Positions 16,071 through 56,177 of a stretch of DNA of 64,000 nt are shown in pieces. The position numbers were made by a program, and so were the translations under genes. Source of the DNA: Eunapius fragilis (Eukaryota > Porifera > Demospongiae > Spongillida > Spongillidae); NCBI GenBank assembly GCA_963681505.1, contig OY811972.1:8076720-8140719 (forward strand), read 5' to 3'. The notes under the pieces were generated by a model. The model made no database searches. It worked only from the letters and a program-made list of their open reading frames with translations, and was not told the DNA's origin. How positions within the stretch are numbered: position 1 is the stretch's first letter; each line of letters starts with the position of its first letter.

Positions 16071-16072
16071 TT

Positions 16073-32816: not shown

Positions 32817-32832
32817 TACAGTAGGCCGGTTT

Positions 32833-35131: not shown

Positions 35132-35174
35132 GTAAGTGATGTTTAGTTATGGAGAGATGTATATGGACTAATGA

Positions 35175-36119: not shown

Positions 36120-36768
36120 GTTGGTATGAAATGATCTGCTCCATTTACAATGTACTGGTCAGCATGTACTGGTACTTTAACATGATTTAGAATAAAATGT
36201 TTCGGGGAAGTTACAACATGTAAAAATCATAACATAGCATTTACCGTTAACATTACCATGCGCCTTCTTAGTGGCTGATATTTTTATCCCACATTGGACA
36301 TCAGTGGTCTCTTATTTTATACTTTATGCCACATGTACATGTGTTCAAGATGTAATTTCTATACCAATGAAATGTCCAAAGTCAGATGAGCATATGGAGG
36401 TGATGAATGATGTTGTTGAGTGGTGGGACAATGACCAAAACCATCTGTATAGTGAAATAGATTGTTCTGGGGCAAACTCTCATACCCCAATGTGGGAACA
36501 TCCCCTCCCCCTCCCCCCCTCCCCCCTCCCTCCTCCCTAACTGTGGCTGCATCGTTTACTATTCGTTGGCTGCATCACTTTTTATTAGCTTCCATGACAG
36601 CTGGGATTAGGATATAGCTTGACCATATGAATAAAGTGACATGGTGAAATGATCATGCAGCATAGAAGCTGTATACTCCCTCCACATGCCTTACATGGTA
36701 TCCTCACAGTTCTTAATCACATCACCATTGGTGTAGCCTCACCTGTGCACGCCATCTTAATAAGACAC
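36120..36768. other. Intergenic or intronic sequence without a gene
   Basis: Nothing recognisable apart from a CCCCTCCCC-rich stretch near 36501-36536 and, from about 36715, a piece of the repeat also found at 8530-8585 and 28545-28600. Confidence 0.5.
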
Positions 36769-37128
36769 AATAGGCTGGAATGGTACACAGCACACAGACC
36801 AATACTCCAATAGGCTGGAATGGTACACAGCACACAGACCAATACTCCAATAGGCTGGAATGGTACACAGCACACAGACCAATACTCCAATAGGCTGGAA
36901 TGGTACACAGCACACAGACCAATACTCCAATAGGCTGGAATGGTACACAGCACACAGACCAATACTCCAATAGGCTGGAATGGTACACAGCACACAGACC
37001 AATACTCCAATAGGCTGGAATGGTACACAGCACACAGACCAATACTCCAATAGGCTGGAATGGTACACAGCACACAGACCAATACTCCAATAGACTGGCA
37101 TGGTACACAGCACACAGACCAATACTCC
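36769..37128. repeat. Minisatellite: nine tandem 40-bp units
   Basis: Nine copies of a 40-bp unit starting AATAGGCTGGAATGGTACAC. Eight are essentially identical and the ninth differs slightly. It expanded inside the DIRS-associated repeat (the first unit continues from TAAGACACAATAG). It has no spacers, so it is not a CRISPR array. Confidence 0.97.
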
Positions 37129-37602
37129 AAACATAACACCATACAAAAATAACACTAATAACAACAACAACATCGGGCAGCCAACACAACAACACCACAC
37201 ACAAGGCTGGGCAGGGGGCTTAACACAAACCTATATTTTAAAAGAAGATGAGCCCACATCTCCTTTAGGAAATACCCCTGTGGAAAACCTCAAAAGAAAT
37301 CTGCACTGCCCAGCCACATACAACACAATTCACAGAGAAGTCCACCTACTGCCTCAGTGTCATAGTACTCCAGGCTTATCTGTCATCTGTTAAGGACATC
37401 TGCTCATTTTGCAAACAATTTACCATCTGGTTTTGAGTACATGTATGGGTGTGGTTGGGGAGTGTAAATAATAATCTCCAGACACTGTCACATCATTTTC
37501 TATAAAGCCCAGGAGGTCATACCACCCACCCCATGTCCCCATCTACATACATGTATGTATTACTGCACATAAGGATGCCTTTGTTCCTTCTCTCCTTACC
37601 AG
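37129..37602. other. Non-coding sequence before exon B7
   Basis: No gene. 37310-37390 matches part of 8375-8460. Only a short remnant of the B-exon acceptor block remains (37577-37602). Confidence 0.5.
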
Positions 37603-37704
37603 GACAATTCAACTTCACTGTATGTGGCAAGTTGTCATGGTCATCATGATGTAGTACAGACCTTGTTGGGAGCTGGTGCTGGAGTGAATATAGCAACATC
37701 TGAT
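37603..37704 (+). CDS. Ankyrin-repeat exon B7 (102 bp)
   Basis: DNSTSLYVASCHGHHDVVQ...NIATSD, phase 0/0. TSL replaces TPL and CH replaces QE/QN. Sequence 37705-38219 after it is non-coding. Confidence 0.75.
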
Positions 37705-39327
37705 GTAAGTGATGTTTCTAATTCATCAGTTGTAAAGTGGATAAATGGAGAGATGTGATAGGTACTGAGCATGATGATTTACAAATAAACATGGGACAAT
37801 GACCAAAACCCAAGGCCCACTCTACTCATTATTATTTTCATGCTGAATATAAGAAATCACATTTCATGTTCAAAGTAGTAAGGTTTTTCCAACATTGAAA
37901 TATAACTAATCATGCAAGCTTTATTATTTACCTACACATACACACGTAGGACGAGGGTAGAACAGGCTTTAAGGTACATGGACATTAACGGTTTTACTGT
38001 TTAACCACTAGCGCCACTTATAAGTGGCAAAACTATTGTGCTTCAGATACTCCTCCCGGATTAAATCTCCACTCTGGGGCACATAGTGTATCCACCCAAA
38101 TCTATAAACAATGTAATGACATGAGGGTCCTATGTTATTATCCCACATTGGATATCAGTGGCCTCTTTATGCCACATGTACTGTACATGTCATCAAAATG
38201 TAATTTCTATACTCATTGCAATGTACATGTTACGAACGAGTTTCCAATGCATCCTTTACATAACTATCCTTGGCAGATTGTGACCTCTAGTGGCCATGCC
38301 TCTTGAATAAGTGATGGACCACACCAGCCCTCACTGCAGCAGTGGCACCACCTGCCCACAGACTATGCATGCCAAATACACTTGGGTCCATACCCAACTG
38401 TTCTGTCTTCTCTAGTAGCAACTCCCTAAGTCTTGTGTAGCTGATCCCCCCCCCCCCCCCCTGATTTACTCAATCACTGCCCACCTTTTGCCCAAAACAC
38501 TTTGCCATGCTCTTGTGTACACAAACCACCCATGCCGAAATATCTCTCCATCATGGCTACCAGGTATGTAGGTGTCCCTGTACGAGCAATTACCAGTGAG
38601 GAACCCTCCCTGTACTGATCTGTCTTGCTAGACATTATATTTATGGTCATGCTTTCTGTGCCAAATGCAATATCAGAGCACTGCAACTTTAACAACTCAT
38701 CACAATGCATAAAACCAGCAAATGCCACCAGGCATACTACTAACAGTCTGACATCAGACAATGATGGTTCCTGCCCCACCAAGTCTACCATTGCCCTTAA
38801 CATATCTGCAGTGACAGGCTCCTTGCACATCTTTGGCCGCACCAACTCACTCTTGAGACCTGCCAGTGTCACCTGCACTATTGGTGCATCTCCCACTGAT
38901 GGCAAACCAGCCACCTGATGCAGCCAGGCACCAGTGCTTCCACTGCCTCGTCTGTTGCAGCTCACGACTCAACAGACTCACTCAGATGTTGGAGGTAAGA
39001 GTGCCAGGTGGATTTCTTGCACAGAGAACACAGGAACACCTTGCCTTGCCTCTGCCCATAGTTTCCATCTCTTGAAGGCACCCAGGTACAGCGCCGTCCA
39101 CCCACACTTGCACGGGAACAACTCGTCAACACTCACATTTGATCTGTGTACTCGAATCAAATGTATATTTTGGGGGAATATTTGGGGAGAAAAATCAGAT
39201 TCAAGTAAAAGCGCTAACAAGAAATTGAGCTACTTGTACTATTTGCAGTGGACCACCATACTACACTAGTAGACTTGACTATAGCATGCCAGCACGCCAT
39301 GTTCCGTCTTACTGACACTAAGAACTC

Positions 39328-39440
39328 ACTGGCCACACTCATCGACCTTCACTCACTAGCCACACCCATCTACCCGCAATCACTAGCCACACCCATCGAC
39401 CCTCACTCACTGACCACGCCCATCCACCCTCACTGGCCAG
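39328..39440. repeat. Short tandem repeat, about 28-bp unit, four copies
   Basis: Degenerate units containing CACTGGCCACACCCATCGAC. The copy C equivalent (21225-21255) has about one unit. Confidence 0.75.
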
Positions 39441-39484
39441 CAAGCAGGAATGTATGCCCTTCCATATAAGGGCTTCAACATAAC

Positions 39485-40505
39485 TCATGAAATTAATCAG
39501 CATATAATGAAGTTGCAGTATACATCTGAAAGTTACCTGAATTAGTCACACATTTGACAGATGATTTCACTGTTTCCCTTTTCTCACGTGCCTGTAGTGA
39601 TTGAGGCCCCCATTCTCAACATTGCTAAATTTTAACCTTTCATATTGATTATAATATTGGTATTAGTCCCTGTTTTTGACTACACAACTTGGTACTTGAA
39701 TCTACCCCGTGATAATGAACAGATACATACCCATACCTTGGTGTAATCAAATCCTTTCTTGATCATCCTCCTTCTTTCAGCTAAGGTGTCAATGATGTGC
39801 TGCCTAATTGCTCGCTCCCCAAAGTATTTGGTTGAGCAATTTGGAACCAATTTCTGTACAGACCATATCCTCGAGTTTCTTTTTCTCTTCAGGGTCAGTC
39901 TTAAACAAAGGAATAACATTTCCTTTCCACTGTTCTTTTACACCTTTGTTCACCTTATTTCGCTATGGATTTTTAAAAGTCACTTTTCAATTCCATGATT
40001 TATAATGCTTACATCATCAGGTACCATCTTTTCTCCTCTGGTGGGATCTTCATCAACTCAACAAGGGAAAGTTTTTTCCTGGCACTGCCAAAGCCTTCAG
40101 GTGCAGGAAAATTATCACAGGCAGCTGCTTTTGTGGGCTGCTCCAACGTTAGCATTATGAGCGTCCTTAACTTCAGTTGCTCACTAACAGTTTTAAGCCC
40201 ACAAACTTTCAGCTACTCCATGCTGCCATGTTGGCACAGCAACGCAAGAGACGCTCCATCACAAATTCCCTGCTCTGTGAATTGTGTTAATTAAAATTAA
40301 AAAAACATTGTGGTTGCGACACGTTCAGATGCTGATTAATCATCCCGCCCTTTGGGCAGGAGCATGCACAATATGCATGAGCAGCATGTATGTGCACATG
40401 GCATTGGCATCAAAGAGAAGGAAAAAGGTACATTGGTATTAGCTATAAACAATTATCCCACCTATTCTGATTCAAGTTGCATCTCACGCAATGGGACAGC
40501 AGATA
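39485..40505 (-). pseudogene. Inserted host-like gene fragment with a SAM-like domain
   Basis: The minus strand at 40283-40022 reads TQFTEQGICDGASLALLCQH, GLKTVSEQLKLRTLIMLT and KKLSLVELMKIPPEEKRWYL, ending at a donor GTAAGC. At 39955-39737 it reads VNKGVKEQWKGNVIPLFKTD and, in another frame, FGERAIRQHIIDTLAERRRM, then IKKGFDYTK, ending at GTATGG. The first part resembles a sterile alpha motif (G-DG--L--L, LKV-GLKTV--QLKL). Each piece has an internal stop or frame change, so it is decayed. The block is absent from DIRS copy C at 21300, so it inserted into DIRS copy F. Confidence 0.5.
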
Positions 40506-41639
40506 TACATGTACATGTACATGTAGACATCTTGTTTATATATACTAGCTGCAAACATCTAACCAGATACACTACACCTCCTCACACTCACATACCACAC
40601 CCATCAACCCTCACTCTACACCCATTGATCCTCACAACTCTACCAGGCTTGCCACCACTCACTGGCTTACTACTAACAGTCTGACATTAACACATAATAT
40701 AACAATCTTTAACAATTCTGTTAGCAAGTGTGGCTGTCGACTACCCACCAGTACTCTCATATCACACAGCTTGTGTGCAATGGAGTCCCCTAAGCACCAC
40801 CACCAATTCCCTTCCCGTAGAACTCTGGGCTGCTTCTCCTGGCAACCAACTACCCTGTGCAACATGCAGGCCATGCTCCACTGTATACCCCCAATAGCCA
40901 GTATCACTCACATTTGAATACACCAACCTAACGGCTGAAGGGCTAAGCCATATAGGCTGGGCATTATATTGGGCCACACAACTAGATGATCTCCAAAACT
41001 CTAACTCCCGCTGCACACCTCGGTTGATCTCTAAGTGCTCACACCATGCATGTCTGGACCACAGCAAGACCTACAAACTCCTAGTCATAATCCTAGACAT
41101 TGGCCCCAAAGCCAACCCCATGGAAATAATCTTGCCAACCAAACTAGCAATAAACCCTGCATTCAGATGTGTGGCTACCCCAGTGATCTGCCACATGGCA
41201 CACAACGCTGCCAACTTAGCTTCTGGAACCAAAACACAGCCCCGTTCCAGGTCTGCATCGAATCCCAACCATGCTGTGCTAAGTGACGGGAGCCAAACTG
41301 ACTTACCCTCATGCACAACCAAACCCGCACATTCAAGAGCATCCCTCACCCATGCACTGGCCTTTTTGGCCTCTATCTTACCCTTAACTGCACATATGGA
41401 AGTTACTTTTCTAAATCAAATAAAAATTCATCTATATACTTTAACCCCTTAAGCACACTTAAATAAATATCATATCCGATAGGTACATCGATCTAATACC
41501 CAAATGTTGTCTGATACAAAATAAGATGACCCATGCATAACCACATACAAGTACAAGTACATGTACTGCTTATTCGAACTCACAAAGGTGATCAAAATAA
41601 TTAATTATGCGAGTGGCCATATTTCATAAACGGAACTAC

Positions 41640-42050
41640 ATAGGGTATGCAATTTTGTGTAATACAGTTGGGAGAATATATATGGGAAATGGTATCTCAA
41701 TGTGAGAAGGTAAGGTATTTAGGGTGGTACAATTAACCCTATTTGTGCCTTTTACTACTCCTTGGTAGAGGGCCCAACAATGTCCATGGAACGGGCTCCA
41801 ACATGATTGGTAGTGGGATGAGTGGAACAGGCTGTCCTCTTCAGTTGTGCACAGACCTTCTGACATGTTGCACAGTTGCGACTAATGTTGGTCTTATCCT
41901 TGTTAATATTGGCCAGTAGAAACTGCTGGCTAGTTCACCTTTTTCCCAGGTGTTCTACCATTGGAATTTCGTGTGCCAGCTTCTGTGCTGCTTCTCAGCA
42001 TTTTTTTCACTCTTCCACCCTTCCTGACTGCCCCTTTACTAGATGTTTGA
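41640..42050 (-). mobile_element. Old relic of the Gmr1-like LTR family (integrase piece)
   Basis: The minus strand keeps PVPLIPLPIM and GPLPRSSKRHK, close to PVPLVPLPIMSEPF and GPLPRSSKGHK of the nearly whole element at 15752-20905. Only the zinc domain and the start of the integrase core remain. Much older than the full element and heavily broken. 41400-41640 and 42050-42415 contain nothing I recognise. Confidence 0.7.
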
Positions 42051-42415
42051 GGGAGTCCCCAGATGTCAATCCTTAGATGTCTGCATTTCCTTGCATCAGT
42101 TTTCTGAAGTTCATTGAAAAACCTCCACCACCCCCTCCTCCCCCCCCCCCCCCCCATCCCCGAAAGTCTAGATCAGACCTTTCTCCAGCTCCACCTTTTT
42201 GCTAACAGTTAATCCTTTCTGGCACCCCTATGCTGTGGACAAACATCGTGGGGTTGGTCCTTCCAGGAGCTTACAATCTTTCATGATACTGGTACTGTCT
42301 CTGGTTCCAACTCTTGGACCTGATTATGCTTCTAAGCACCACCCTGGGGTACTGTTACCCTCTTTGAGTCGTTCCGGACCCGGGGTTCCACTGCCTGTTC
42401 TTTTTCCCATTACCA

Positions 42416-42463
42416 GAGCAACTCAACTGCACTTCTTGTGGCAAGTGAGAAGGGCCATCATGA
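42416..42463 (+). pseudogene. Ankyrin B-exon remnant interrupted by a LINE
   Basis: After an acceptor CATTACCAG the sequence AGCAACTCAACTGCACTTCT continues through a degraded copy of the B exon (LLVASEKGHHD-like) and stops at HHD, exactly where the LINE-derived sequence starts. Confidence 0.6.
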
Positions 42464-44575
42464 TTAATATAATTAATTATAGAAGCATCCCAAGGATCCA
42501 GTTCCATCAAGTCCAGAAGTTACATTACCATCAGAAGGTTTCAGGTTGCCCCCAGACTTGTCTGTCCTTCATCAATTTCCTAGAGATAGTGCTAGTGGCC
42601 CCTCAGGTCTGCGAATACAGCACCTCATTGACGCTGCCAAAGTCCACCTGGCAACCCCCATCTGTGCATCACTCAGGGCTGTGGTAAACATCCTAGCAGG
42701 AGGTAGAGCCCCAGCCAAGGTAGCCATGTACATGTATCTAGCTGGTGGCTCACTCACAGCCTTGATTAAATATGAAGAGGTCTCCACTGGATATACGGCC
42801 TATTGTTGTTGGAGAGGCTCTTAGAAGACTAACGGGAGAATGTGCAACCCATTTCCCAGAACTTTTCCGGTTGTTTTTTTTGGTGCTATGGGGCAGCATC
42901 CCACCCTGTGTCACTCCACGGGTACTCTTGGGTCGGAGCGGGGAGTTCAGCAGGGGGATCCTTTGGGTCCTCTCCTGTTCTCTCTAGTTCTGCATTAGCT
43001 TGTCCAGACCATTGCGGCAGACAGTGAATGTTCTGAACTTTTTTTTAATATGTGGTACCTTGATGACGGTACTCTGGCAGGTCCCAAGGATGCAGTGAAG
43101 CATGCTATCCACCTAATTCAGCAGTTTGGTCCCTCCTTGGGGCTATATATCAATATGGCCAAGTGTGAAGTCTTTTCTCAAGGGGCCATGGAGGGCTTTC
43201 CAGCGGACATAAAGGTGTTTCATGAGCCTAACTTAGAAATCCTGGGTGCTCCTATTGGGGATGCAATATTTTGTGCCAAGTTCCTCGCTCAAAAGCGAGC
43301 CAAGGTGGTCAATAGATGTCAGAGGTGGGTTCAGTAGATCCTCAAATTACACTCCTTCTCTTACTTCATTGTGCCACCTTTTGTAAGCTGGTCCATTTAG
43401 CTCGCTCCACTCCACCTGCCCTTGTGTCTGAAGGCCTAGCATCATTGTTTGATGCGGAGGTTCGTCGTCACTTTTGTGACACTGTTGCAATTGATCCCTC
43501 TGACTCTTGAGTGGCTTCAAGTTCAGCTGAGCCTCAGCAGGGGTGGTCTAGGCCTCCGTAGGTTGGCTTTACATTGCTCGGCTGCTTATCTGGCCTCAGT
43601 AAACAAAGCAGGCTGTTCAGCTCCACTGGATGAGTTCACCTTACAAGCTGTCACCTTGTTCAATAGATTGGTTCCACCTGCAAGTTCCATCTCTGATAAG
43701 TCTCGTCTGGAGCCCTGTTCAAGTCAAGAAGACTTATTATCCAGAATTGATGACCATCAATTTGACCAGCTGTGCCTCATCTCCACCCCGGCCAATCGTG
43801 CTCGTCTTCTTTCAGTTGCATCGTGTCATGCTTCTCCATGGCTAGTCGTAATTCCATCAAGAGGTATTAATCTTTGCTTGGATCCAGACCAGTTCCAGGT
43901 TTCTTTAATATGGTGGCTTGGGATGGACACATCATCACAGCTACCAACCCCTTACTGCCCTGACCACCAGCTGGATCCTCTTGGGCATCATGCTGTGACG
44001 TGCAAAGGGGGTGGTGATGGGGTGTTGAGCCACAACAGCTTAAGAGATGTTTTTGCCCAGTTTTGTCACAGGGCAAGGCTGGGTGGTCAGCTTGAGGTAG
44101 GTCATGGGTATGGGGGTGAGAGTTCACTCAGTAGGCCGGCAGACATCCTAGTGCCCAACTGGATGATTGGGAAGCAAGCTGCTTTTGACCTAACAGTGGT
44201 CTCTCCACTTAACTCCAGTACATTGAATGAAGCGGGAGCCAGAAGTGGGTTAGCAGCTGGAAAGGCTGAAGTGCGCAAGCACAATGCCAATGACACCAAG
44301 TGCACAGGTCTGCATACCCTTGGCAGTAGAGACGTATGGTTGTTGGGGTGCGGAAGCTCAGGGTTCCATTTCTAGACTGGCTGCCCGTCTGGCTTTGCAG
44401 TTGCAGTGCAGCAAGTCAAGGGCCATTTCAAGCATCTACCAGAGACTAAACCTCATCCTAGTTCGCTGCAATGCCAGGGCCTTGCTATCCCGTGCTTGGT
44501 TTCTGCATGTGTGTGTGTGTGTTTTCTCTTTCTTTATTGTCTAGGTGGTAGGTATAATAACAATAATAATAATAA
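42464..44575 (+). mobile_element. 5'-truncated LINE with C-terminal restriction-like endonuclease
   Basis: Plus strand: FPRDSASGPSGLRIQHLIDA (RT start, about 42570-42640), RPIVVGEALRRLTGE (about 42795-42838), GVQQGDPLGPLLFSLVL (about 42943-42990) and the catalytic YLDDGTLAG (about 43055-43082). NMAKCEVFS (about 43155-43180) follows. A C-terminal part at 43449-44375 has CPDHQLDPLGHHAVTC, GGDGVLSHNSLRD, RPADILVPNW and KQAAFDLTVV, a zinc motif and PD-(D/E)xK-like endonuclease core. It ends in (AATA)n-like tail sequence at about 44551-44575. It starts in mid-ORF, and several frame changes (near 42775, 42985, 43330 and 43500) make it inactive. The family name is uncertain. Confidence 0.75.
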
Positions 44576-44882
44576 ATGTGCATTTATTCCTTTCAAACGC
44601 AATGAAATAACCCTATAGATGTACATGTAGATTGTGGTGGGTCAAGGCCCACGACCTCAGTCCTTACCCTAATACCACAAACCATGTGTACCAACATCTG
44701 TACAGAGTACTTGCTGTAACACATCATACACATGTACAAATTGATCTGGTGATGTTGTCATTTCTACACCCTCCCAACATGCACCTTCTCCCTCTGTACT
44801 TCTCTCATTCACTTCTCTTCTTCATATTCACTTTCAAACTGTTCTCCTATTACATGTATGTGATGTCTTTGTTTCTTACCAG
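44576..44882 (+). other. Intron before exon B8
   Basis: No gene. Same sequence as 21870-22136, including the pyrimidine block, with a small deletion near 44848-44870. Confidence 0.7.
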
Positions 44883-44984
44883 ACCAATGCAACTCCTCTG
44901 TATATGGCAAGTCAGGAGGGTCATCATGATGTAGTACAGACCTTGTTGGGAGCTGGTGCTGGAGTGAATATAGCAAGATCTAAT
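44883..44984 (+). CDS. Ankyrin-repeat exon B8 (102 bp)
   Basis: TNATPLYMASQEGHHDVVQ...NIARSN, phase 0/0, acceptor TTACCAG, donor GTAAGTGATG. Confidence 0.85.
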
Positions 44985-46212
44985 GTAAGTGATGTTTAGT
45001 TGTGGAGAGATGTATATGGACTAATGAGGGTATGGAGGGATGTTATATGGATGCAGAGGTGCTGATATGAATATAGCAAGATCTGATGTAGGTGATGTTT
45101 AGATGTGATGGGGTGTGAACTATATTATTAAATCTACGATACCTTAATGTAAAGAGCCCCAAGTTTAGGAAAACATCATGTATGTTTAGAACAAGAGCAG
45201 CTTGTACACATGTTCTCCATCCACACTCTGTACTTTATCTGTAGATTTATAAAATATGAAGAGAATTGATACATGTACTTGTGCTGTTGGTTAGATAAGC
45301 AATATATGAGGAGTGTGTTCAAATAATCAATGGAGGGAACTGAAGAGGTGGTGGCATCAAAGCAGATAGATGGTGTGGGGTGTAGATACACCACTCAACC
45401 TTTGCAATACCTTATCAGTACATAGTAATAAAAAACCTTGCTACATGTATCATGCAATGCCTGCTGCAACACATCATGTACATGTACAAATTGATCTGGT
45501 GATGTTGTCATTTCTCTCTTTTTAATATTCACTTTCAAACTGTTCTCCCTTCTTATGTGCATTTTTGATGCAGATAGATGGTGTGGGGTGTGAACAATCT
45601 CATAACAGTTAAAATGAACAGCACATGGTGTGCACGTTAGGACACCTACATTGTCCTCTAACACAGCTCCATCTCTTATATCCCCCCCCCCTCCCATGGC
45701 ACTCCAAACACCATGTAATGATGACATTTGGGTGGGAACTTATATCCCATAGCCATTCTTGGCTGACTACACTGTATGACCACCAGCAGCCGTACATGTA
45801 TATCTTAAGCAGCTGATCATACACACAGCATGCAGCTTGACATGCCTACAGTTCTATACATCTCTGTACATCTCTGTGGATGGTTTAATGGTGTACTTTC
45901 CATGTATATGTAAACTTCCCCTCCCCCTCAGCTGGCACTTGAGTTGATGAAATTATTAATTACCCTACCCACTGTGATGGGTCAAGGCCCGTGACCTCAG
46001 TCCTTACCCTAATACCACAAACCCATGTGTTCCATGCACATGCTGGCATGCATGCAAATTGATGTGGTGATGTTGTCATTTCTACACCCTCCCAACATGC
46101 ACCTTCTCCCTCTGTACTTCTCTCATTCACTTCTCTTCTTCATATTCACTTTCAAACTGTTCTCCCTTCTTATGTGCTTCTTTGATGCCTTTGTTCCTTC
46201 TCTCCTTACCAG
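44985..46212 (+). repeat. Intron with truncated exon and intron copies
   Basis: No complete gene. 45059-45096 is the tail of a B exon (GADMNIARSD-like, followed by GTAGGTGATG). 45480-45575 is a B acceptor block without its exon. 45180-45400 matches 9160-9260 and 29290-29350, and 45600-45830 matches 23180-23345. These are leftovers of unequal duplications. Confidence 0.7.
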
Positions 46213-46314
46213 GACAATGTAACTCCACTGTATCTGGCAAGTCAGGAGGGTCATCATGATGTAGTACAGACCTTGTTGGGAGCTGGCGCTGGAGTGAATA
46301 TAGCAATATCTGAT
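46213..46314 (+). CDS. Ankyrin-repeat exon B9 (102 bp)
   Basis: DNVTPLYLASQEGHHDVVQ...NIAISD, phase 0/0. It is the last B exon before the intact 3' part of the gene. Confidence 0.85.
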
Positions 46315-46903
46315 GTAAGTGATGTTTAGTTGTGGAGAGATGTGTATGGACTAATGAGGGTATGGAGGGATGTTATAAGGATGCAGTGGCAGAGGACCAT
46401 TAATAAAATGTACACAGTTATTGAGATTAAAGAAGTGTGCACGTTACTCAAGTGTGAGTCATTCCACTGTGACTTTGTATGGGAGCGTGCTTCACATCTT
46501 CAGATCATGATGCATTTACTCATATAAATTGGGGCTGATATACATGTAGAAGTTTTTAATATATAAACATCAAGGGAAGACTAATATCTCGCATTTTATT
46601 CTAATAAAATTTCTGTGTATTGATAACCCGTGAGAACCGCATGCCTTTGATGTTGTGGCAGCCATATTAATTTTTTTACTCTGCTTATATTACTAAGTGT
46701 TGGTAAGTGTGTCACATAACTATCATACAACAGCTATCAACACTGAGGTTTATTTATGCCTCAAGTGTTTCTTTAATAGTCTATGCCAGCCACAAATGCC
46801 ACATGCAAGTAAGATCTTTTAGTTCTTTGCATAGTATTAATGGCAAGAGCTTCATAATTAATACCACAAACCACTTTTGACGACGTAACGACACAATACA
46901 GTT

Positions 46904-46992
46904 AATAATGTGTGCAGATAGTGGACCGTCTCCTCTGTTGACTAACCAGGTCAGTCAACAGAGGAGATGGTCCACTATCTGCACACATTATT
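46904..46992. repeat. Fold-back, 40-bp arms, 9-bp loop
   Basis: Left arm 46904-46943 is the inverse of 46953-46992 with one mismatch. The right arm is the normal intron sequence (copies at 6795-6835, 14120-14160 and 35848-35890); the left arm is the added inverted copy. It lies in the intron before exon A6. Confidence 0.9.
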
Positions 46993-47136
46993 ATTAGCAT
47001 GCACAATCATTTGTTGTTTGGACTTAAATTGAAGTGTGTGTAGATGTACATGTAGATGTACTTGCACAACGATTACTTGTAAAACACAAAGGACTGGTCA
47101 TTAATAAGTAATTTACATTGATCACTCTTGTATTAG

Positions 47137-47235
47137 GGTGGTTGGAGTCCATTGTGGATAGCAAGTTTCAATGGACACCTTGAAGTAGTAAAGAAACTCA
47201 TTGAAGCAGGAGCTAATATCAATCAGGCTGATAAG
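47137..47235 (+). CDS. Ankyrin-repeat exon A6 (99 bp)
   Basis: GGWSPLWIASFNGHLEVVKK...GANINQADK, phase 0/0. 47236-47855 after it is intron without other features. Confidence 0.85.
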
Positions 47236-47855: not shown

Positions 47856-47936
47856 GATGGGAGCACACCCCTGGACATAGCAGTGAAGAAGGGTCACAAG
47901 GAAATAATTGAACTACTGAAGCTTAACATGAGCAAG
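47856..47936 (+). CDS. Last ankyrin-repeat exon (81 bp)
   Basis: DGSTPLDIAVKKGHKEIIEL, then LKLNMSK: a capping ankyrin repeat of 27 residues. Acceptor TCTTCAG, donor AAG/GTTAGG, phase 0/0. The lysine-rich surface and missing GAD-VN end are typical for a C-terminal cap. It is not part of the duplicated A/B families, so it marks the conserved 3' core of the gene. Confidence 0.85.
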
Positions 47937-48679
47937 GTTAGGTTAGGTGTGCATGTACATGTACATAGACACCTAATGTGTGTGCTGGTGTGATGTTTGG
48001 TACTCCCTGCAATATCAACCTTTTTATGATGTCCTACTGTATATGTTTGATAATTTGCTATGTACATTTTGCCAGACCAACATGTATCATCTATAACTGT
48101 ATCACTGTTGACTACATTGTACTGTGAGGTGCTTTTGCATAACCCTTGTTTACATGTAATTACTTGCTTGTGTGATTCACTTGTGACCTCCATGTAATGT
48201 ACGTCTAACATACTGATTTCAATAAGAAGTCTGAAAAGTACTAGTTGTCTGCTGCAGACAACCATCAACCTTCATTAACTTCATTACATGACCTGTACAT
48301 TGCCATTTGTTGGTTGTATTAATGAGGCAAAATGCTCAGACTTTGCAGGCCCATGATTTGTCTGCCGTAGCCCTTGAATTATAGTGTATAGGTGTTATTT
48401 GTATGGTGTGTAAGTAACAAAGTAATTTATATATTTTAATTACATCTATATGTTTTAATTATGTATTTGGCTATGATTAAACGCAGAGACATACATGTAC
48501 AGTAAGAAAAAATAATCCATTTTGAAATCATATGCTTTTAAATCTGTGTTTTGTCAATAGGCACTGAAGATGAAATAAAGTCATCTGATGATATACATGT
48601 AGTGTTTCCATGAGCACCAAATGTTGCATGTGTTGTTGTATACCATCAATGATGTACATATTCCCATGTACTACTTCAG

Positions 48680-48721
48680 GGTGATGGCCTAACTGAACAG
48701 AATAACCTGAAGCCTTCAGAG
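48680..48721 (+). CDS. Linker exon (42 bp)
   Basis: GDGLTEQNNLKPSE, 14 residues between ACTTCAG and GTGAGT, phase 0/0. It would connect the ankyrin and NHR parts. Sequence around it (47937-48679 and 48722-49051) has no other gene. Confidence 0.6.
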
Positions 48722-49051
48722 GTGAGTCGCCTGGGTGATGTGTGGTCTGGGGATGAGGTAATAGGCAGTGCAGTATGCATGTAGGTCACCAAGGCAACAC
48801 AAAAGGTCTAATGGACCACCCTGCAGTACAATACATGTACATGTATGTACATGCAAGTACACAGACAATCGAATAGTTGCAATACACTGCTAATTCATAA
48901 CACTATTAATAGTGGTGGGAGCTACAGGTAATCTTGATAAGAGGTCAGGGTACTACAAGTATGTGGAGGAGCACTGTTGTTGCTTTTGAATTAGGAGATG
49001 TATGCTTCCATGGCATATGTCATTATGAAATGTATATTTGTCTGTTTACAG

Positions 49052-49077
49052 ATAAAGCAGCCAGTGGAACATAAAGA
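49052..49077 (+). CDS. Small linker exon (26 bp)
   Basis: IKQPVEHK plus two bases, acceptor TTTACAG, donor GTAAAC. It ends in phase 2, which is what the next exon needs (GA + G gives Glu). Without splicing a stop follows directly after the Glu. Confidence 0.65.
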
Positions 49078-49170
49078 GTAAACATTTGTACCACCAAATG
49101 TATTCATGATCCTTCACACTCCACTCTATCTCCTCCCCTCTCTCTTCCCTCCAATATTCCTTCTCAATAG

Positions 49171-49306
49171 GTTGGTCACATTTGCCTCCACACATGGTGA
49201 CAATATCAGACTTGAACATGGAGGACAAGTGGCCTGCAGATTTAATAACAACTCAAGAGGCATTGTGATTACTTCTGCTCCTCTTCCTAGTGATGTCATC
49301 TTTCAG
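49171..49306 (+). CDS. NHR (Neuralized) domain, exon 1
   Basis: Completes a split Glu codon, then reads LVTFASTHGDNIRLEHGGQV, ACRFNNNSRGIVITSAPLPS and DVIFQ. This is the start of a Neuralized homology repeat: F-x-HG-NI-L--GG--A-R, then GIV-S--PL. NHR domains bind peptide partners, as in Neuralized binding Notch ligands. Bounded by CTCAATAG and GTGAGA, ends in phase 0. Confidence 0.9.
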
Positions 49307-49695
49307 GTGAGATGACAGGTTTAGGCATTGTCACCACTGAGTGTTGTGACTTTTGTGCATGTTATCTTGGCTGCTTTAAATTATACACCCGGGTATAAAA
49401 TTGACCTTAGGATGACATTGAATTATACTGCACATATTACAGTGTTCATATCACATGCCTGTATAAATATATCTGCACTCATCTATGGTTACTATTCTTG
49501 GTTTGTGGGGTGGGGGAAATATCTTATTTGTTGTATCTGATTTTGTGTGGCTTTATTTTATCCAGTTGGTGCCTTTCTAGTACATCATGTATACAGATGC
49601 ATACATGTACATGCAATTCTGGCAATTGCTAACACTGCAAGTGCATTTGAATGTGTGCATATTTCATATTATGAATACTGATTACACATCAATAG

Positions 49696-49872
49696 GTGGA
49701 GATTATGGAGGTGGACTCCAAATGGAGTGGCTCTCTGTCCATTGGAGTCACTACACAAAGTACAGCACAGGTGGTTTCTGTGGACAATGCAAAGCAGTTG
49801 TTGGGACAAAGTTTTATTGTGACATCATCAGTTAATGGCAAATCATCCTTAGCTCTGTATGCAGGAGGGCAG
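49696..49872 (+). CDS. NHR domain, exon 2
   Basis: 59 residues: VEIMEVDSKWSGSLSIGVTT, then a variable loop, SFIVTSSVNGKSSLALYAGGQ. W-GSL-IGVTT is a hallmark of NHR domains. Acceptor CAATAG, donor GTATGA, phase 0/0. Confidence 0.9.
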
Positions 49873-50326
49873 GTATGACACTGTTTAGTTCATGTACATG
49901 TGTACATCTGTTGTGTGTGCTATAGAGCAGTCCATGCCGCCATTGTAGAAAATTGTATGTCTCATTGATTATTGTATGTTTGTGTATGTACATGCATGTG
50001 AATCAAACTATTCACTAGCTGGTCGATATGAGGCTCCCTCTGGATAGCAATAGAAAGATGCTGCCAAATATATTGAGTAACATTTTGAGTGTGATCCTCT
50101 TGCCACGTTCTTTTAGGAGAGGGAGGGATCGAGAAACACCTTGTATTGCTACAGGGCACAAAATACATGTTAAATTAAGCATGTAGTGATACTAAGTACT
50201 TAATCACCAATTATTCCACATGGGCATGTACCTGTACATTTAAAAAATCTTTTTTGACATGCATTAGATGTACATCTGCAATGAATGAACTGGTTCATAT
50301 AAATACATATGTATTAATATCACCAG

Positions 50327-50609
50327 GAAGTGGATCAACTGCCTGATGAAATCGATTTCCATGACCTAAAGGTTGGGGACACAGTTGGACTGCTGTACAC
50401 AAACTCTGGTACCTTGCACCTCTTCATTAATGGTGCCCACATGGTCACACTTCCCTGCACTGTCCCCATGGGTGTGTATGGTTTGGTGGACCTGTATGGT
50501 CAGTGTGTGAAGGTATTCCTAAGACCACTGACACCTTGGAGTGGGGGAAGTCCCCTTCATGTCATGGCTGATAAATATGCTCTTGATCAGCAGAGAAAGC
50601 AGCTTGCTG
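50327..50609 (+). CDS. NHR domain, exon 3, and linker to Roc
   Basis: Encodes DLKVGDTVGLLYTNSGTLHL, FINGAHMVTLPCTVP and GVYGLVDLYGQCVKVFL, the end of the NHR beta sandwich (G---GLL----G-LH-FING, V-DLYGQC--V). A charged linker DKYALDQQRKQLAG follows. Acceptor CACCAG, donor GTAAGC, ends in phase 1, matching the Roc exon. The intron 50610-51580 shows nothing else. Confidence 0.9.
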
Positions 50610-51580
50610 GTAAGCTGTCCATGTCACCTGTTGTTTAGACCTGTATGTTGCATTGGAGCTTAGGTTTATGTATATGTACACTGTAGTCCTGTTACTTGTA
50701 CAGTTCATGTACATATAGCAAACACTTCTTTTTTGCAATTGCATTGAGAAGTGACTCAGCTGACTCTAAATATGTTGGCTTCTGATGGGTCAGACCAGTT
50801 GTCTTTGTATTTTACCTTTGAGTTATTTGTTTGTAACTCTGCTTAGTTTGGGTAATGTAACAATAAATTTAGAGGGAAGTGTACCATTTCACACTTGATA
50901 GGGAGGACCATCACTGGTACACTTAGTGGGATGAAATTTTAAAAAATTTGAGCACAGTATCATTAGCAAAGTTTCATTAATTTTTATTGTTGCAATGATG
51001 ACAACCATAAAAATGACCATCTCCCTACATGCGCATTCATCATTGGGCTGGTGGGGTGGCTACAATTCTAACAGTTGTACATAATGCAACTACATTATCT
51101 CATATATAAATATTTGAGTTGCATAATGAACAATACATGGGCTTGCTGTGTAGTGCATTAATATCTATTCCAGCTGAGCAAAGCATTATGGTGACATGAT
51201 GGGAATGGTTCTCCCAGCAGGGCATAGGGCCAGTTGTTACAATATACCAAGGACTGGATGTCTATTATAAAAAGGCCTTCAAAGCTCCGTTCTGTAACAA
51301 TCAACCCATGCATGCGGCTGGTTATTTCCTCATATTTCCTGAAATATCCTTAAGTGTGTTGAATGAATGGTAATTTAATTAATGAGCACTTTCTAAATGA
51401 TGAAGTACATAAAATGTAGCAACCCTTACCACCTTTATGAAGTGGCAAATGTGAGGTATTATTGGGCCAAACACACTTAAGATCTGATGAAAAGAGACAC
51501 ATAATCAAATGCAGTGATGATGAAATATTGATCTTCAAGTGTGTTGCTTTTACGTAAATATGAATTTCTATCTCTATCAG

Positions 51581-53502
51581 AGGCAACAAAATTGTATGAA
51601 GAAGCTATGAAGGAAGGTTCAGTAAATATATCGATTATCAAATGCCTGGTGCTTGGGATAGCAGGTGTGGGGAAGACCCACCTCAAGAGGCTCCTCCTAC
51701 CAGATGGTAATGATAAATCCACTGGTCGTGTTAGCACAGGACTGGCAGATAACCCAGTACAGGCATTTGTTGGCTCTGTCAAGTCCATACTAGCAGGTGT
51801 GGATGAGAATGATCCAGGTAGGTGGGAGGTTATTGATGAGGCTAAGCTGATGCAGGTCCTTGCAAGTGCATACCATTTGAAGCCTACACCTACAAAAGCA
51901 CAGATAATTCAACTTCCATCACTTCCAATGGCTTCAGAGAACCTCACTAATAAAAGTTCTCAATCAGCTAAGACAGCTCCTAAACCATCTACCCTAGAAC
52001 CGTTGGAAGCAGAGCATCATAGTGACCGTGACGTGTTTGATAACCCAGCTACTGGAGAAGTAGATAGTCTATTCATAGAAGCATTCAAAAACATAAGCTG
52101 TAAGAAAGTGTTAAACGTTAGATTGGTCCAGTTCATTGACAGTGGTGGTCAGCCCCAGTTTCTTGAGCTCTTACCAGTCTTTGTTCAAGATGTTTCTGTT
52201 GTTCTCTATGCTATAAACCTTTCTGAAAGTCTCAACCACTGCCCTATGATCTATTTCTACGGAAAGGACAGTCAACCAGTAGGAAATCCGTACAAGTCTC
52301 CATCTTCCCACAAGCAGGTGTTGGAGCAGTGTGTGAGAGCTGCACATGCCAGAGATTTCCGTCCCAATTTGTTTGTAGTTAGAACTCACCGCGATGAGGA
52401 GGATAAGTGTTCTGAGACGAAGGGGGGAAAAGGTGATGTCATCAAGCAAATGGTGAATTCAGAGCACCTGATATGCAAGAATGGTGTGGACGTAATCTGG
52501 GATATAAATGGTGCAAACCCTGATTCCTATGACCAAAAGGTAGCTGGTGAGCTAAGGCATGCAATAGTAGATCACTGCAATGATGAAGCCACTCCTTCCC
52601 TGCCTATAAAGTGGTTTGGTCTAGAGATGCAGATAAAGCACACAGCTGTAAGAGGTGTTATCAGCCTTCATAGATGTCTTCAGCTGGCACGGAGCTTAGG
52701 TATGGATGAGCAAGCCCTAGAAGCAGCTCTCCTGCACATGGTCAAATATAACCTGTTGCTATGGTACCATAATGTACCCTCTCTTCGCAACATAGTGTTC
52801 TGTGATCCCCAAGTTATCCTAAACATCATCTCAGACCTAGTCCAGTGTAAACATGAGCTGGCTGGAGGTGAAGTGTTGGGCATTGCTGGTGTAAAGAATG
52901 CATGGTGCTCTAAGTTCAGGGACCATGGTATTGTCAGTACAGATTTTCTTTATGTTAATCGCTTCGAGAAGCATTTTTTGGATGATGTATTTCATGTAGA
53001 GCATTTCACTGCCCTCATGTGCCACCTCTTCATTATGGTTCCATTGGAAGGTGGTGACTACTTGATGCCAGCTCTTTTGGACCCTCTTAGTCCTGAGAGC
53101 ATCAGACGACATAATGCATCAGCACAACCTCTCCTATTGCACCTCCAAAATGATCTTGTTCCATTTGGATTGTTCAGTAGCTTAGTTTCTTCCATTCAGA
53201 CAGAATGTTCAGTTTTAGAGGTGAATAAAGTACCAGTTTGTCTTTATAGGAACTGCGTGTCTTTCAAATGTAGAAAGTTTCCAGCCCAATTCACCATTAT
53301 TGATTCCTCATTATTCATAGAGGTGCACCTTGATTCTGCACGAGACATTCCCACAGCCTGTCCCAGAATACGAAAGCTGATATATGAGGGTATAAAAAAA
53401 TGTAGTGATGTTCTCCGTTATCATAGTTTGAGGCTCCTCAAAGATGGCTTTGCCTGTTCTAATAAATCTTGCAAAGGTGTGGCCGCACCATATGACAAGT
53501 AA
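51581..53502 (+). CDS. Roc-COR GTPase exon (Roco family)
   Basis: Starts at the acceptor TCTATCAG/AG; the phase-1 G of the previous exon completes Glu. 639 residues follow (EATKLYEEAMKEGSVNISII...). The P-loop LGIAGVGKTHLK lies about 30 residues in. A long insertion follows, then the switch II-like block FIDSGGQPQFLELL and a THRDE element in place of the usual NKxD, making a Roc GTPase. From about WFGLEMQIKH the helical COR domain continues (RSLGMDEQALEAALLHMVKY, VFCDPQVILNIISDLV), with beta-rich C-terminal sequence (SLFIEVHLDSARD) and a Cys-containing end CSNKSCKG. Roc and COR together form the dimerising GTPase switch of Roco proteins. A stop follows at 53500-53502 with AATAAA overlapping it. 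Alternatively a donor at 53477 (GCAAAG/GTGTGG) leads in the correct phase to the Death-domain exon 55909-56177. Confidence 0.92.
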
Positions 53503-53790
53503 ATAAAAACATTCTCTAACGAGAGAGTTGTTGGTATATAGGATTGACCAATGGTGGTGTAAAAAGCATGGAAACAAGAGTGACAGAAATATTATTGGAA
53601 AATTGAAATAGGCCTATATTTAGCCCATTACTCAGGCATGTGTGGTGTATTGTGTGCTAAATATAGGCCTATTTCAATTTTCCAATAATATTTCTGTCAC
53701 TCTTGTTTCCATGCTTTTTACACCACCATTGGTCAATCCTATATACCAACAACTCTCTCTTTAGAGAATGTTTTTATTTACTTGTGTCAT
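53492..53790. repeat. Fold-back with about 133-bp arms at the end of the Roc-COR exon
   Basis: 53492-53624 and 53656-53790 are near-perfect inverted copies separated by about 31 bp. The left arm includes the last codons and the stop of the Roc-COR frame (ATGACAAGTAAATAAAAAC). A diverged single arm lies at 29590-29690. Confidence 0.9.
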
Positions 53791-53832
53791 AAGTTTTTTT
53801 TCACCCTGTCATAGCAGTATCATAGTCAATAA

Positions 53833-54133
53833 TCAAATGTAGGAAGAGGATGGACGATCCCCTTTATCTCTTAATGCAAGAACAAAGAACTTTAATAGTA
53901 CTGCTGGTGGTGGGGGCAGGGCTGGTGATGCAGGCAGGAGTGCCAGTGGGGGCAGCGCTGGTGGTGCCGGCGGGAGTAGCTGCTGGTAGTGGTGTGGGCA
54001 GTGCTGCTGGTGGTGGTGGCAGAAGCGGGGCTTCTGGAGGTGGTGGGGTGAAGGGGAGAGGAGTTGGAGGATGAATGTACTCTTCCTCCTCCGACCCCTC
54101 GTTGGTGAAAAACCCGCGAAGGTCATTAGCCAT
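53833..54133 (-). other. Proline-rich open frame, unassigned
   Basis: From an acceptor-like TATATGTAG the minus strand reads MANDLRGFFTNEGSEEEEYI, then a low-complexity P/A/T-rich stretch to 53864; another frame over the same DNA is also open. GC-rich GGTGGT/GGCAGG repeats cause the composition. The first 28 residues look coding, the rest could be repeat-driven. It might be an exon of the minus-strand gene at 55140-55742. 54134-54980 shows nothing else. Confidence 0.3.
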
Positions 54134-54990
54134 CTACATATACGTAACAGAGAGTGTGATTAAATTTTTACTTCTTTATTTTTTAAAGCAAAGTGCAAAG
54201 CCTTTACACATCCACATAGAGTATTATTAAATTTTTACCTCTTTTTGCTAAGTGCACTATTCAGCGGATGAGTGGCTTTTATACCTGCAAAGCCTTAACA
54301 TGTGTGCAGACTGTGCTATAATTATATTAGTCCGATTCCATCATATTAATGACAGGGAGGGAAGGGGTGTATGCGTGTCAGTTGTGCTAAAATTCTATTG
54401 GTCAAATTTGATCCAGTAAAAATGGTCCTATCTAAACATGGAGGTGTAGCCTACATGCAGTTAAGTTGTATACATGGGTAGTGTGGGAACTAAGGAAGTG
54501 AACTACATGGCAGCATGTAGATCGATAGATAAGGATATGTTGTCAGGTGAGGTAATATCTGTGGACAGGGTCTGCAGCTTTATGAGCGTGGGCAGAAGGT
54601 CTGTTTTTATTTCACTACATAAATGTGAGTGTGCTGCTAGAAGTACCTGATGGTGGCTTATCTTACTTACTGCTGCACAGGCAGATCACTACCCCTCGGA
54701 ATAGCTTTTTCAAGACCACCATTATACTCCATTGGTGCATGAGATTTGGGTTCATACAAGGAGTAGCTATATGGGAAAAGGATATAGTTGCAGCTATTTA
54801 GTTCTCAGCCCTTGCAACTGTAACTATATTCATACAGTTGCAACATTCACAGTACATGGCTAGACAAGGAAGTCTTCAGATAAGGAAGTTTTATCAGATT
54901 AAAACAATAGACACTGCTGTACACACAGTTGAGTCACCATGCATGCATTACATGTGAAGTGAATGGTTTTGTGCAGATCCGTGCTGTACA

Positions 54991-55073
54991 TAGTCGGGCG
55001 GGCCCTACTACCTACAGGTAGCTATAGTAGGGTGACAAACCCGACGAAACGCGGTTGTAGGGCCGCCCGACTA
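54991..55073. repeat. 83-bp MITE-like inverted repeat
   Basis: TAGTCGGGCGGGCCCTAC at the left and GTAGGGCCGCCCGACTA at the right. TGTACA flanks it on the left, with TGCTGTACA on the right. The ends resemble the palindromic element at 62281-62354 (TAGTTGGGCGTAGCCCGAC). Confidence 0.7.
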
Positions 55074-55139
55074 TGCTGTACAAATGTTGCATGCACAGCT
55101 TTTTAATGTTAATACAACATGCCATAACATACCTTTGGG

Positions 55140-55742
55140 TGGTAGTGGTAGTTCTGTGACCCCTGCGGTACCGCGTCCTCTCGGCAGCACATTTAGCCAA
55201 TCGGACAGCGGGATCATTCCAATACCGACTCCTTTTAATGGTAGCTGATATTTCTCCCTTTTAGCAGCGCGATTTCCCTCGAGGTCCTCTTCATATCGCC
55301 GCCTTTTAGCAGCACGGTTCTCCTCAAGGTCCTCTTCATATCGCCGCCTTTAGTTTTAGCAGCACGGTTCTCCTCAAGGTCCTCTTCATATCGCCGCGTT
55401 TAGTTTTAGCAGCACGGTTCTCCTCGAGGTTCTTCATATCGCCGCCTTTGAGCAGCACGGTTCTCCTTGGGGTCCTCTTCGTATCGCCACCTTTTAGCAG
55501 ATCGCTTAGATTCAATATCGGCCTTGTAGCTGTCGCGTACAGAGGCCTTCTTCATTTCGGGATCGGCCTTGTAGCTGTCGCGTACAGAGGCCTTCTTCTT
55601 TTCGGGATCGGCCTTGCAGTTGTCGCGTACAGAGGCCTTCTTTTTTGGGGGGATTGGTCTTGTAGAGCGCTCGGGCTTTAGCTTTGTTCTCGTATTGCTT
55701 TTGGAGGTATTCCGCTCGTTGCTTAGATCTCTTCTTTTGCAT
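55140..55742 (-). CDS. Charged tandem-repeat protein, two 15-residue repeat types
   Basis: The minus strand starts MQKKRSKQRAEYLQKQYENK. Three units like KKASVRDSYKADPE (45 bp each, about 55500-55640) and about five units like RRYEEDLEENRAAK (45-50 bp, about 55255-55490) follow, then RLAKCAAERTRYRRGHRTTT and a good donor GTATGT at about 55132. The period is 15 residues in both repeat types, suggesting a charged helical rod. Small frame changes occur (for example at the G run near 55650 and among the second repeats), so this copy may be a pseudogene. I have seen similar repeats in sponge and cnidarian predicted proteins but know no function. It lies antisense in the intron between the Roc-COR and Death exons. 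Confidence 0.5.
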
Positions 55743-55908
55743 TTTTAGAAAAAGAACTCACTATTAGCCAAAGTAACAACTAAATTAGTATCACAATTTG
55801 TGCCATGCGTGACAGCGTTGTTAGGAAGTGGAGTACTTTTACATGCACTTGTCTGTTTATATGAATTTTTGTATTCTTCATCACCTGTTTATTTCTGTCT
55901 TTCTTCAG

Positions 55909-56177
55909 ATCATACTTTTACTCATAAAAATGTACTCAGTGCTCTTAAAGACGTGGTGGATTGGAAGTCACTGGGAACCCAGCTACACATTAGCCCTGCA
56001 AAGATAAAAGAAATTGATATTAATAATCGTGGACAAGTTGCGGATTGCCGACGCCATCTTATTCAGTTCTGGTTGGAATCAGACACGTCATGCTCCTGGA
56101 AGAAGCTGATTGATGCCCTCTCATCCTGTGACCATGTGGTCCTGGCTGAACAATTAAAGACATTGTATAGACTGTAG
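55909..56177 (+). CDS. Death-domain terminal exon
   Basis: Starts after TTTCTTCAG; a phase-1 G from upstream gives Asp. Encodes HTFTHKNVLSALKDVVDWKS, LGTQLHISPAKIKEIDINNR and, through CRRHLIQFWLES, the end LIDALSSCDHVVLAEQLKTL followed by YRL-stop, a complete six-helix Death domain (VVDW--LG--L-I---KI--I, WLES, W--LIDAL). Death domains recruit adaptors by homotypic contact. Joined to the Roc-COR exon it gives ANK-NHR-Roc-COR-Death. It could instead belong to a separate gene; the phase match and order support joining. A truncated inverted copy is at 1758-1836. Confidence 0.85.

What the first reader, a model, noticed from the sequence alone, without database searches (positions are those of the whole stretch)
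47856..56177. ANK - NHR - Roc - COR - Death architecture in one gene
Seven consecutive exons with matching phases give ankyrin cap, linker, a three-exon NHR domain and a Roc-COR GTPase; a phase-compatible Death-domain exon follows. Each module is individually known (Neuralized NHR, Roco GTPases such as LRRK/DAPK, Death adaptors), but I do not know a described protein combining all of them. It would couple a partner-binding front end (ANK plus NHR) to a GTP switch and a death-fold signalling tail, like an innate-immune or cell-death receptor.
Basis: partly seen in the sequence, partly recalled or inferred. Interest (0 to 1): 0.88.

Follow-up and report, generated by a model that had tools for sequence, protein, structure and literature searches.

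The report
Sponge ankyrin-NHR-GTPase-death gene cluster
A sponge-like chromosome carries a cluster of at least five related genes that join ankyrin repeats, a Neuralized-type domain, a Roc-COR GTPase and a death-type domain in one predicted protein; the copy in this window is damaged, but two neighbouring copies read through completely, and the combination extends arrangements already hinted at in oysters and sea slugs.

Summary
The domains are real. Spliced NHR exons match Neuralized at E 3e-31; the large exon models as a full Roc-COR, with all 24 PDB matches at E <= 0.001 being Roco proteins; the last exon is a Death domain.

The window copy is not an intact gene. The first-exon block lies inverted inside the array.

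The surroundings hold five copies within about 265 kb, each with the order ANK exons, cap, NHR, Roc-COR, Death-type exon. Two give complete GT-AG models of 19 and 20 exons, 1337 and 1373 aa. No transcripts were available.

NHR with Death and TIR, apparently with Roc/COR, was already mentioned for oyster, centipede and Aplysia, so this is a new variant: ANK in front, no TIR. Likely role (inferred): a cytosolic receptor or scaffold GTPase. LRRK2's Roc binds an NHR region of NEURL4 in human cells, suggesting an NHR-Roc switch.

The parts
3784..22238 (+). Seven upstream one-repeat ANK exons (3784-3882, 6960-7058, 7501-7602, 11625-11732, 14288-14386, 14842-14943, 22137-22238), perhaps a partial duplicate of the array
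   Evidence: the stretch 3297-4017 with the first ANK exon is repeated at 27029-27733. The 11732 end is read from the sequence: the usual donor position has no GT
26028..27001 (-). Upstream and first-exon block of the family, inverted relative to the gene; reads MEQ where c1 and c3 read MGQ
   Evidence: 91.8% over 1015 bp to the upstream block of copy c1
27500..47235 (+). Eight ANK exons nearest the gene body: 27500-27598, 28373-28474, 35030-35131, 36021-36119, 37603-37704, 44883-44984, 46213-46314, 47137-47235; each one repeat, phase 0
   Evidence: the last five plus the cap give Pfam Ank E 3.9e-48
47856..47936 (+). Capping ANK exon (81 bp)
   Evidence: 71% over 28 residues to the cap of E. 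muelleri ANK-kinase P0129; present in the five copies
48680..48721 (+). Linker exon 1 (42 bp, phase 0)
   Evidence: Open with conserved splice sites in c1-c4; not found in c5
49052..49077 (+). Linker exon 2 (26 bp)
   Evidence: Found in c1-c4 and c5; weak donor score -2.0
49171..49306 (+). NHR exon 1
   Evidence: Pfam Neuralized
49696..49872 (+). NHR exon 2
   Evidence: Pfam Neuralized
50327..50609 (+). NHR exon 3 and linker to Roc, donor phase 1
   Evidence: E. muelleri P0050 reads on in the same way across this junction
51581..53496 (+). Roc-COR exon, 3' end missing; the open frame ends in a stop made by the insert.
53495..55783 (.). Insert: 133-nt inverted repeat with arms at 53495-53627 and 53653-53785 (98% complementary), then repeat-rich, mobile-element-like sequence
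   Evidence: a stretch of about 130 bp at 29.6k is 78% alike; edges by comparison with P0002 and c4. The right edge is an estimate
55909..56177 (+). Death-domain exon (type 1) and stop
   Evidence: Pfam Death E 1.6e-5 and 4.5e-6; 81% to P0050

Best explanation
The window holds a damaged member of a clustered sponge gene family. Its complete members encode a probably cytosolic Roco GTPase of about 1340-1370 residues: a short MGQ start, 9 or 10 ankyrin repeats of two types, each on its own phase-0 exon, a capping repeat, one NHR domain, a Roc-COR GTPase on one exon and a C-terminal Death-type domain. Proposed working: the ankyrin array binds a partner or ligand; the NHR sits next to Roc and may contact it in a nucleotide-dependent way; Roc-COR dimerisation then brings Death domains together to recruit adaptors for a cell-death or immune output. 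Shown here: domain content, the same gene order in the five copies found, two complete open models, constraint on Roc-COR, damage in the window copy. Inferred: splicing into one transcript, ligand binding, the NHR-Roc switch, dimerisation and the output.
For: Domains. Five copies in the same order. Complete models c1 (19 exons, 1337 aa) and c3 (20 exons, 1373 aa), junctions GT-AG. E. muelleri ANK-kinase P0129 also begins MGQ. For four pairs among c1-c4, NHR and Roc-COR exons differ by 0.7-3.0% with no gap columns in c1-c2, c2-c3 and c1-c3 and one in c2-c4; introns differ by 4.6-14.2% with 18-331 gap columns. Roc-COR pN/pS 0.22 (c1-c3) and 0.38-0.52 in the other five pairs. Residues of G1, G3 and G4 invariant or nearly so in 50 rows. 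E. muelleri NHR-Roc-COR-Death prediction. In human cells LRRK2 binds NEURL4 through Roc (partly also WD40) and a NEURL4 region with NHR3-4, more strongly with the GTP-binding mutant T1348N: PMC4565672, passages.
Against: No transcript evidence; the E. muelleri models are AUGUSTUS predictions (PMC7385117, passages) and P0050 and P0051 both lack ANK. Co-duplication of two neighbouring genes would also give the same order in five copies. NHR pN/pS is 0.48-1.62 on 2-4 synonymous changes, so constraint on NHR is not shown between copies. Linker 1 is missing in c5; linker 2 has a weak donor. The sponge NHR does not group with NEURL4 NHR3 or NHR4; it is a long branch placed by NHR6. The type 2 tail has no Pfam hit (c1, c3, P0051) and no PDB sequence hit (P0051), and the AF2 model of P0051 failed; a profile comparison with type 1 supports it (96%), as does a weak Pfam Death match of the related P0055 tail (E 0.089).
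Confidence: 0.62

Rival explanations
1. Two adjacent genes, duplicated together: an ANK array gene ending at the cap (kin of the E. muelleri ANK-kinase genes) and a separate NHR-Roc-COR-Death gene with its own start, for example a short ATG frame that runs into linker 2.
For: E. muelleri P0129 and P0145 carry the same kind of ANK and cap in front of a kinase; P0050 and P0051 lack ANK; a short ATG frame before linker 2 is shared by c1-c4; no protein with ANK plus NHR plus Roc was listed in three database searches, each limited in length and candidates.
Against: The cap is the last ANK exon, 1.1-1.6 kb before NHR1, in the five copies; the kinase part of P0129 found nothing in the region scanned; in c1 and c3 the frame is open from MGQ through the array into NHR and the Death-type exon. 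P0050 and P0051 start inside the NHR, so they look cut short at the 5' end.
Confidence: 0.25
2. The window copy is still expressed, with the 53476 cryptic donor used to skip the insert and join Death.
Against: That GT is inside conserved coding sequence in relatives, the first-exon block is inverted, and pN/pS is higher in pairs with c2 (0.42-0.52) than in c1-c3 (0.22).
Confidence: 0.12
3. The whole cluster is decaying, with no functional member.
For: Two of five copies are broken: c2 by the insert and inversion, c4 by a stop and a frameshift in the Roc-COR exon.
Against: c1 and c3 are complete, c5 has an open Roc-COR exon through the COR end, and Roc-COR pN/pS is below 1 in all six pairs of c1-c4.
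Confidence: 0.06

Closest known systems
Neuralized proteins with Death and TIR, apparently with Roc/COR, in oyster and centipede (PMC5094078, passages); NHR, ROC, COR, Death and TIR in the legend of Aplysia Fig. 6 (PMC9334734, passages)
   Same: Neuralized domain combined with Death and, as the texts imply, Roc/COR in an immune-candidate protein
   Different: They carry TIR; no ANK is mentioned. Figures and sequences were not seen, so order and homology are untested
DAPK1, Roco group 3 (PMC6337361, passages)
   Same: Roc-COR with a C-terminal Death domain, no LRR; ANK in front (recalled)
   Different: DAPK1 has an N-terminal kinase and, as recalled, no NHR; no kinase found in c1 or c3
E. muelleri Em0014g975a / Em0014g985a (P0050, P0051)
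   Same: NHR 94% and 92% over the aligned part, COR and second Roc part about 60%, same reading across the NHR-Roc junction; P0050 has the type 1 tail (81%), P0051 the type 2 tail (84% to c1 and c3)
   Different: Models start inside the NHR, lack part of COR and show no ANK; unnamed predictions
E. muelleri ANK-kinase proteins (P0129, P0145)
   Same: Same two-type ANK repeats and cap; P0129 has the MGQ start
   Different: The cap is followed by a linker or coiled-coil-like stretch and a kinase instead of NHR-Roc-COR-Death
Brown-algal ROCO genes (PMC11378527, abstract and section 11)
   Same: Roco GTPase whose repeat units each sit on one exon, shuffled and proposed to vary binding
   Different: LRR not ANK, phase 2 not phase 0, LRR-ROC-COR only; positive selection reported there, not shown here
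LRRK2-NEURL4 complex (PMC4565672, passages)
   Same: Roc partnered with NHR
   Different: Two separate proteins there; NHR3-4, which this NHR does not specifically resemble

Membership tests
Roco GTPases | Roc and COR in tandem | tested here: met
   AF2 pLDDT 77, pTM 0.79; 24 PDB chains at E <= 0.001, all Roco proteins. By Pfam alone not met: COR-A below cut-off, Roc not over cut-off
Roco GTPases | G1, G3, G4 motifs | tested here: met
   Positions of GIAGVGKT, DSGGQ and THRD invariant or nearly so in 50 rows; that THRD is the Roc-type G4 is recalled
Roco GTPases | GTP binding and hydrolysis | not testable with these tools
   Needs protein
DAPK1 (Roco group 3) | Kinase N-terminal to Roc-COR | tested here: not met
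   No kinase family in c1 or c3 at E <= 0.5
DAPK1 (Roco group 3) | C-terminal Death domain | tested here: met
   Type 1 Death over cut-off; type 2, the tail of c1 and c3, only by profile comparison
LRRK / LRR-Roco (groups 1 and 2) | LRR before Roc | tested here: not met
   No LRR family in c1 or c3
Neuralized / NEURL4 | NHR domain | tested here: met
   108.7 bits; PDB 2e63, KIAA1787, E 2.4e-13
Neuralized / NEURL4 | RING, or six NHR repeats | tested here: not met
   One NHR stretch and no RING family in c1 and c3
NHR-Death-TIR proteins of protostomes (with Roc/COR) | TIR domain | tested here: not met
   No TIR family in c1 or c3
NHR-Death-TIR proteins of protostomes (with Roc/COR) | Common descent of an NHR-Roc-COR-Death core | not tested
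NLR / STAND receptors | NACHT or NB-ARC | tested here: not met
   None listed in c1 or c3

The most novel reading that the evidence does not exclude
Sponges keep a clustered, exon-modular family of cytosolic receptors in which ankyrin exons are multiplied and shuffled like cassettes to vary recognition, the NHR is a built-in, nucleotide-sensitive partner of Roc (the LRRK2-NEURL4 contact fused into one chain), and Death tails are swapped between copies; the NHR-Roc-COR-Death core would then be older than the split of sponges and bilaterians.
Probability: 0.2. Interest if true: 0.8.

Novelty: new variant of a known kind. Interest (0 to 1): 0.55.

Why it matters
If transcribed as modelled, it puts a repeat array suited to recognition, an NHR, a GTP switch and a death-fold output in one animal protein, and gives a natural fusion in which to test whether NHR domains regulate Roc, a question tied to LRRK2. 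It would also allow a direct test of whether an NHR-Roc-COR-Death core, hinted at in molluscs and a centipede, is ancestral to animals.

Tried and rejected
Diversifying selection on ANK exons: pairwise counts in the window gave pN/pS 3.2 for the 9 B exons and 1.4 for the 6 A exons, but an event count over 44 of the 46 exons taken from c1-c4 (two with altered 3' ends dropped; c5 not included) did not show more non-synonymous change than neutral: A 8 synonymous to 36, p 0.09-0.32; B 12 to 43, p 0.10-0.34; B codons 1-12, 5 to 30, p 0.02-0.12, by transition weight. Suggestive only. Variable codons fall near positions I recall as DARPin binding positions; recalled, not tested.

NHR of the NEURL4 NHR3-4 type: not supported by the tree of 32 rows, which holds NEURL4 repeats and two sponge NHRs only. 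The best NEURL4 repeat differs by species.

Death type 2: Pfam, PDB sequence search and the AF2 model of P0051 (pLDDT 35) gave nothing; hhalign gave 96%, with the rows of A3 and A4 picked by me.

ANK part of an ANK-kinase gene: no kinase hit in C2:7970720-8290719. NCBIfam: none. PDB by sequence for Roc-COR: one hit at E 0.61. The phage search with the inverted repeat was uninformative. Start peptides of ANK proteins were not found by tblastn; the MGQ exon was found from conserved upstream sequence.
Full report
What the genome is. The window lies at C2:8076720-8140719 of an unnamed 219 Mb, 24-contig assembly. Among named proteins, the closest to Roc-COR and NHR, and the most identical to the ANK part, are from the freshwater sponge Ephydatia muelleri (by score NEURL4 proteins with several NHRs lead the NHR search and a Branchiostoma ANKRD50 the ANK search), so a sponge close to it is the likely source (inference). 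Window coordinate x equals C2 position x + 8076719.

The observation. The spliced NHR exons give a full Neuralized domain (108.7 bits, E 3.1e-31) against 35.0, 24.1 and 35.3 bits for the separate exons. The nearest solved structure is KIAA1787 (2e63, E 2.4e-13), ahead of Neuralized entries 2yue and 4kg0; that KIAA1787 is NEURL4 is recalled. The Roc-COR exon misses Pfam cut-offs, but an AF2 model on 50 sequences (pLDDT 77, pTM 0.79) has 24 PDB matches at E <= 0.001, all of them Roco proteins: LRRK2, LRRK1, Chlorobium tepidum Roco and Methanosarcina barkeri Roco2. P-loop, DSGGQ and THRD positions are invariant or nearly invariant in 50 rows. The last exon is a Death domain. E. muelleri model Em0014g975a (P0050) has NHR, Roc, part of COR and Death in one predicted protein and reads across the NHR-Roc junction in the same way; per domain, identity is 94% NHR (126 of 174 positions aligned), 82% first Roc part, 35% insert loop, 61% second Roc part, 62% COR (173 of 293 aligned), 81% Death. 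These models are AUGUSTUS predictions trained with RNA-seq (PMC7385117, passages), not transcripts.

The ankyrin part. ANK repeats lie on separate phase-0 exons of two types, A (99 bp) and B (102 bp; one of the nine appears to be 108), 15 of them at 3.8-47.2 kb, before the capping exon. In E. muelleri the same kind of repeats and cap precede a kinase (P0129, P0145), so the ANK-cap front looks like a movable module. No protein with ANK, NHR and Roc together was listed in three protein searches, each limited by length, by shared words and by the length of the list.

The surroundings decide. With the genome-search tool unreachable, a 280-kb stretch including the window was put together from fetched pieces, then 40 kb more on the right. 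Five copies were found, each with ANK exons, cap, NHR1-3, Roc-COR and a Death-type exon in that order: c1 (minus, C2:8025083-8049642), c2 (the window), c3 (plus, C2:8156782-8188223), c4 (minus, about C2:8218112-8249215) and c5 (minus, about C2:8267920-8290476, 5' end not seen). In c1, c3 and c4 a conserved block upstream of the first ANK exon contains ATGGGACAG followed by GT, reading MGQ; E. muelleri P0129 also starts MGQ. c1 and c3 give complete models from MGQ to stop, 19 exons and 1337 aa, 20 exons and 1373 aa, with GT-AG junctions. c5 has a Roc-COR exon that is open through the COR end; its full model was not built.

Damage in the window copy. In relatives the Roc-COR exon continues for about 34 codons after PYD and then has a phase-1 donor. 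In the window, similarity to c4 stops at 53495 and resumes at 55899, and to P0002 resumes at 55784. Between lie a 133-nt inverted repeat, 98% complementary, one arm of which is 78% like a stretch at 29.6k, and repeat-rich sequence. The first-exon block is inverted at 26028-27001 (91.8% over 1015 bp to c1) and reads MEQ. c4 has a stop and a frameshift in its Roc-COR exon.

Constraint. For four pairs of copies, NHR and Roc-COR exons differ by 0.7-3.0% and their introns by 4.6-14.2%; exon gap columns are 0 in three pairs and 1 in the c2-c4 pair, intron gap columns 18-331. Roc-COR pN/pS is 0.22 for c1-c3 and 0.38-0.52 for the other five pairs of c1-c4. NHR pN/pS is 0.48-1.62 on very few changes, so it shows no constraint between copies; its 92-94% identity to E. 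muelleri, against about 60% for COR and the second Roc part, suggests it. c5 was not in this comparison.

Cap to NHR. In c1-c4 the cap, linker 1, linker 2 and NHR1 have no indels while the stretches between have many. A direct splice from a second cap donor and an extended linker 1 are also open in the window. c5 lacks linker 1, which is phase-neutral. A separate start before linker 2 is not excluded. Only cDNA can settle this.

Death tails. c2, c4 and P0050 have type 1; c1, c3, c5 and P0051 have type 2. Type 2 has no Pfam hit but aligns with the type 1 profile at 96% probability.

Mechanism. DAPK1 joins Roc-COR to a Death domain and forms dimers through Roc and kinase (PMC6337361, passages); that other Roco proteins dimerise through COR is recalled. 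In human cells LRRK2's binding to NEURL4 depends on Roc, partly on WD40, and on a NEURL4 region with NHR3-4, and the GTP-binding mutant T1348N binds more strongly (PMC4565672, passages). A fused NHR next to Roc could therefore be an internal regulator. The NHR tree does not single out NHR3-4, so this is a lead only. Neuralized repeats are counted among SPRY-like domains prominent in immunity, and proteins joining Death-like and TRADD-N domains are hugely expanded in the sponge Amphimedon (PMC8195603, passages).

Novelty. Nine literature searches, of which only the listed part was seen, showed no description of ANK-NHR-Roc-COR-Death. They did lead to a Neuralized domain named with Death and TIR_2 in a Roc/COR context for oyster and centipede (PMC5094078, passages) and to NHR in the legend of an Aplysia figure of TIR and COR proteins (PMC9334734, passages; figure not seen). 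Hence a new variant of a known kind.

Noticed in passing
window 16990-20581: Open frames that look by eye like a Ty3/gypsy-type retroelement (zinc knuckle, integrase, reverse transcriptase motifs) between ANK exons; listed only.
   Followed up: no
window 1315-1835 and 56100-56623: The 3' end of the gene is present inverted at the left of the window (96% over 524 bp); further inverted duplicates flank the window.
   Followed up: partly
window 3.8-47.2k and the arrays of c1, c3, c4: ANK B exons vary mostly in codons 1-12 plus 27, 32 and 34, while the rest is nearly invariant; a selection test was not conclusive.
   Followed up: partly
G000 C17, C11, C13, C18, C10, C3: Roc matches inside single open frames of 1300-1900 aa, perhaps Roco genes with very large exons or without introns, elsewhere in this genome.
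   Followed up: no
c1 and c3, intron before the type 2 Death exon: A minisatellite of about 20-bp units (ggccacatgttgtgtatagg) fills much of the intron.
   Followed up: no
P0066 and kin: E. muelleri has a related family with Kelch repeats in front of the same kind of Roc-COR.
   Followed up: no
window, THRD motif of the Roc-COR exon: The window copy reads VRTHRD where c1, c3, c4 and c5 read VGTHRD.
   Followed up: no
window coordinates -57292, -94267, -98509 (left of c1) and 175431-175682: Further Death-exon pieces, possible remnants of more copies.
   Followed up: no
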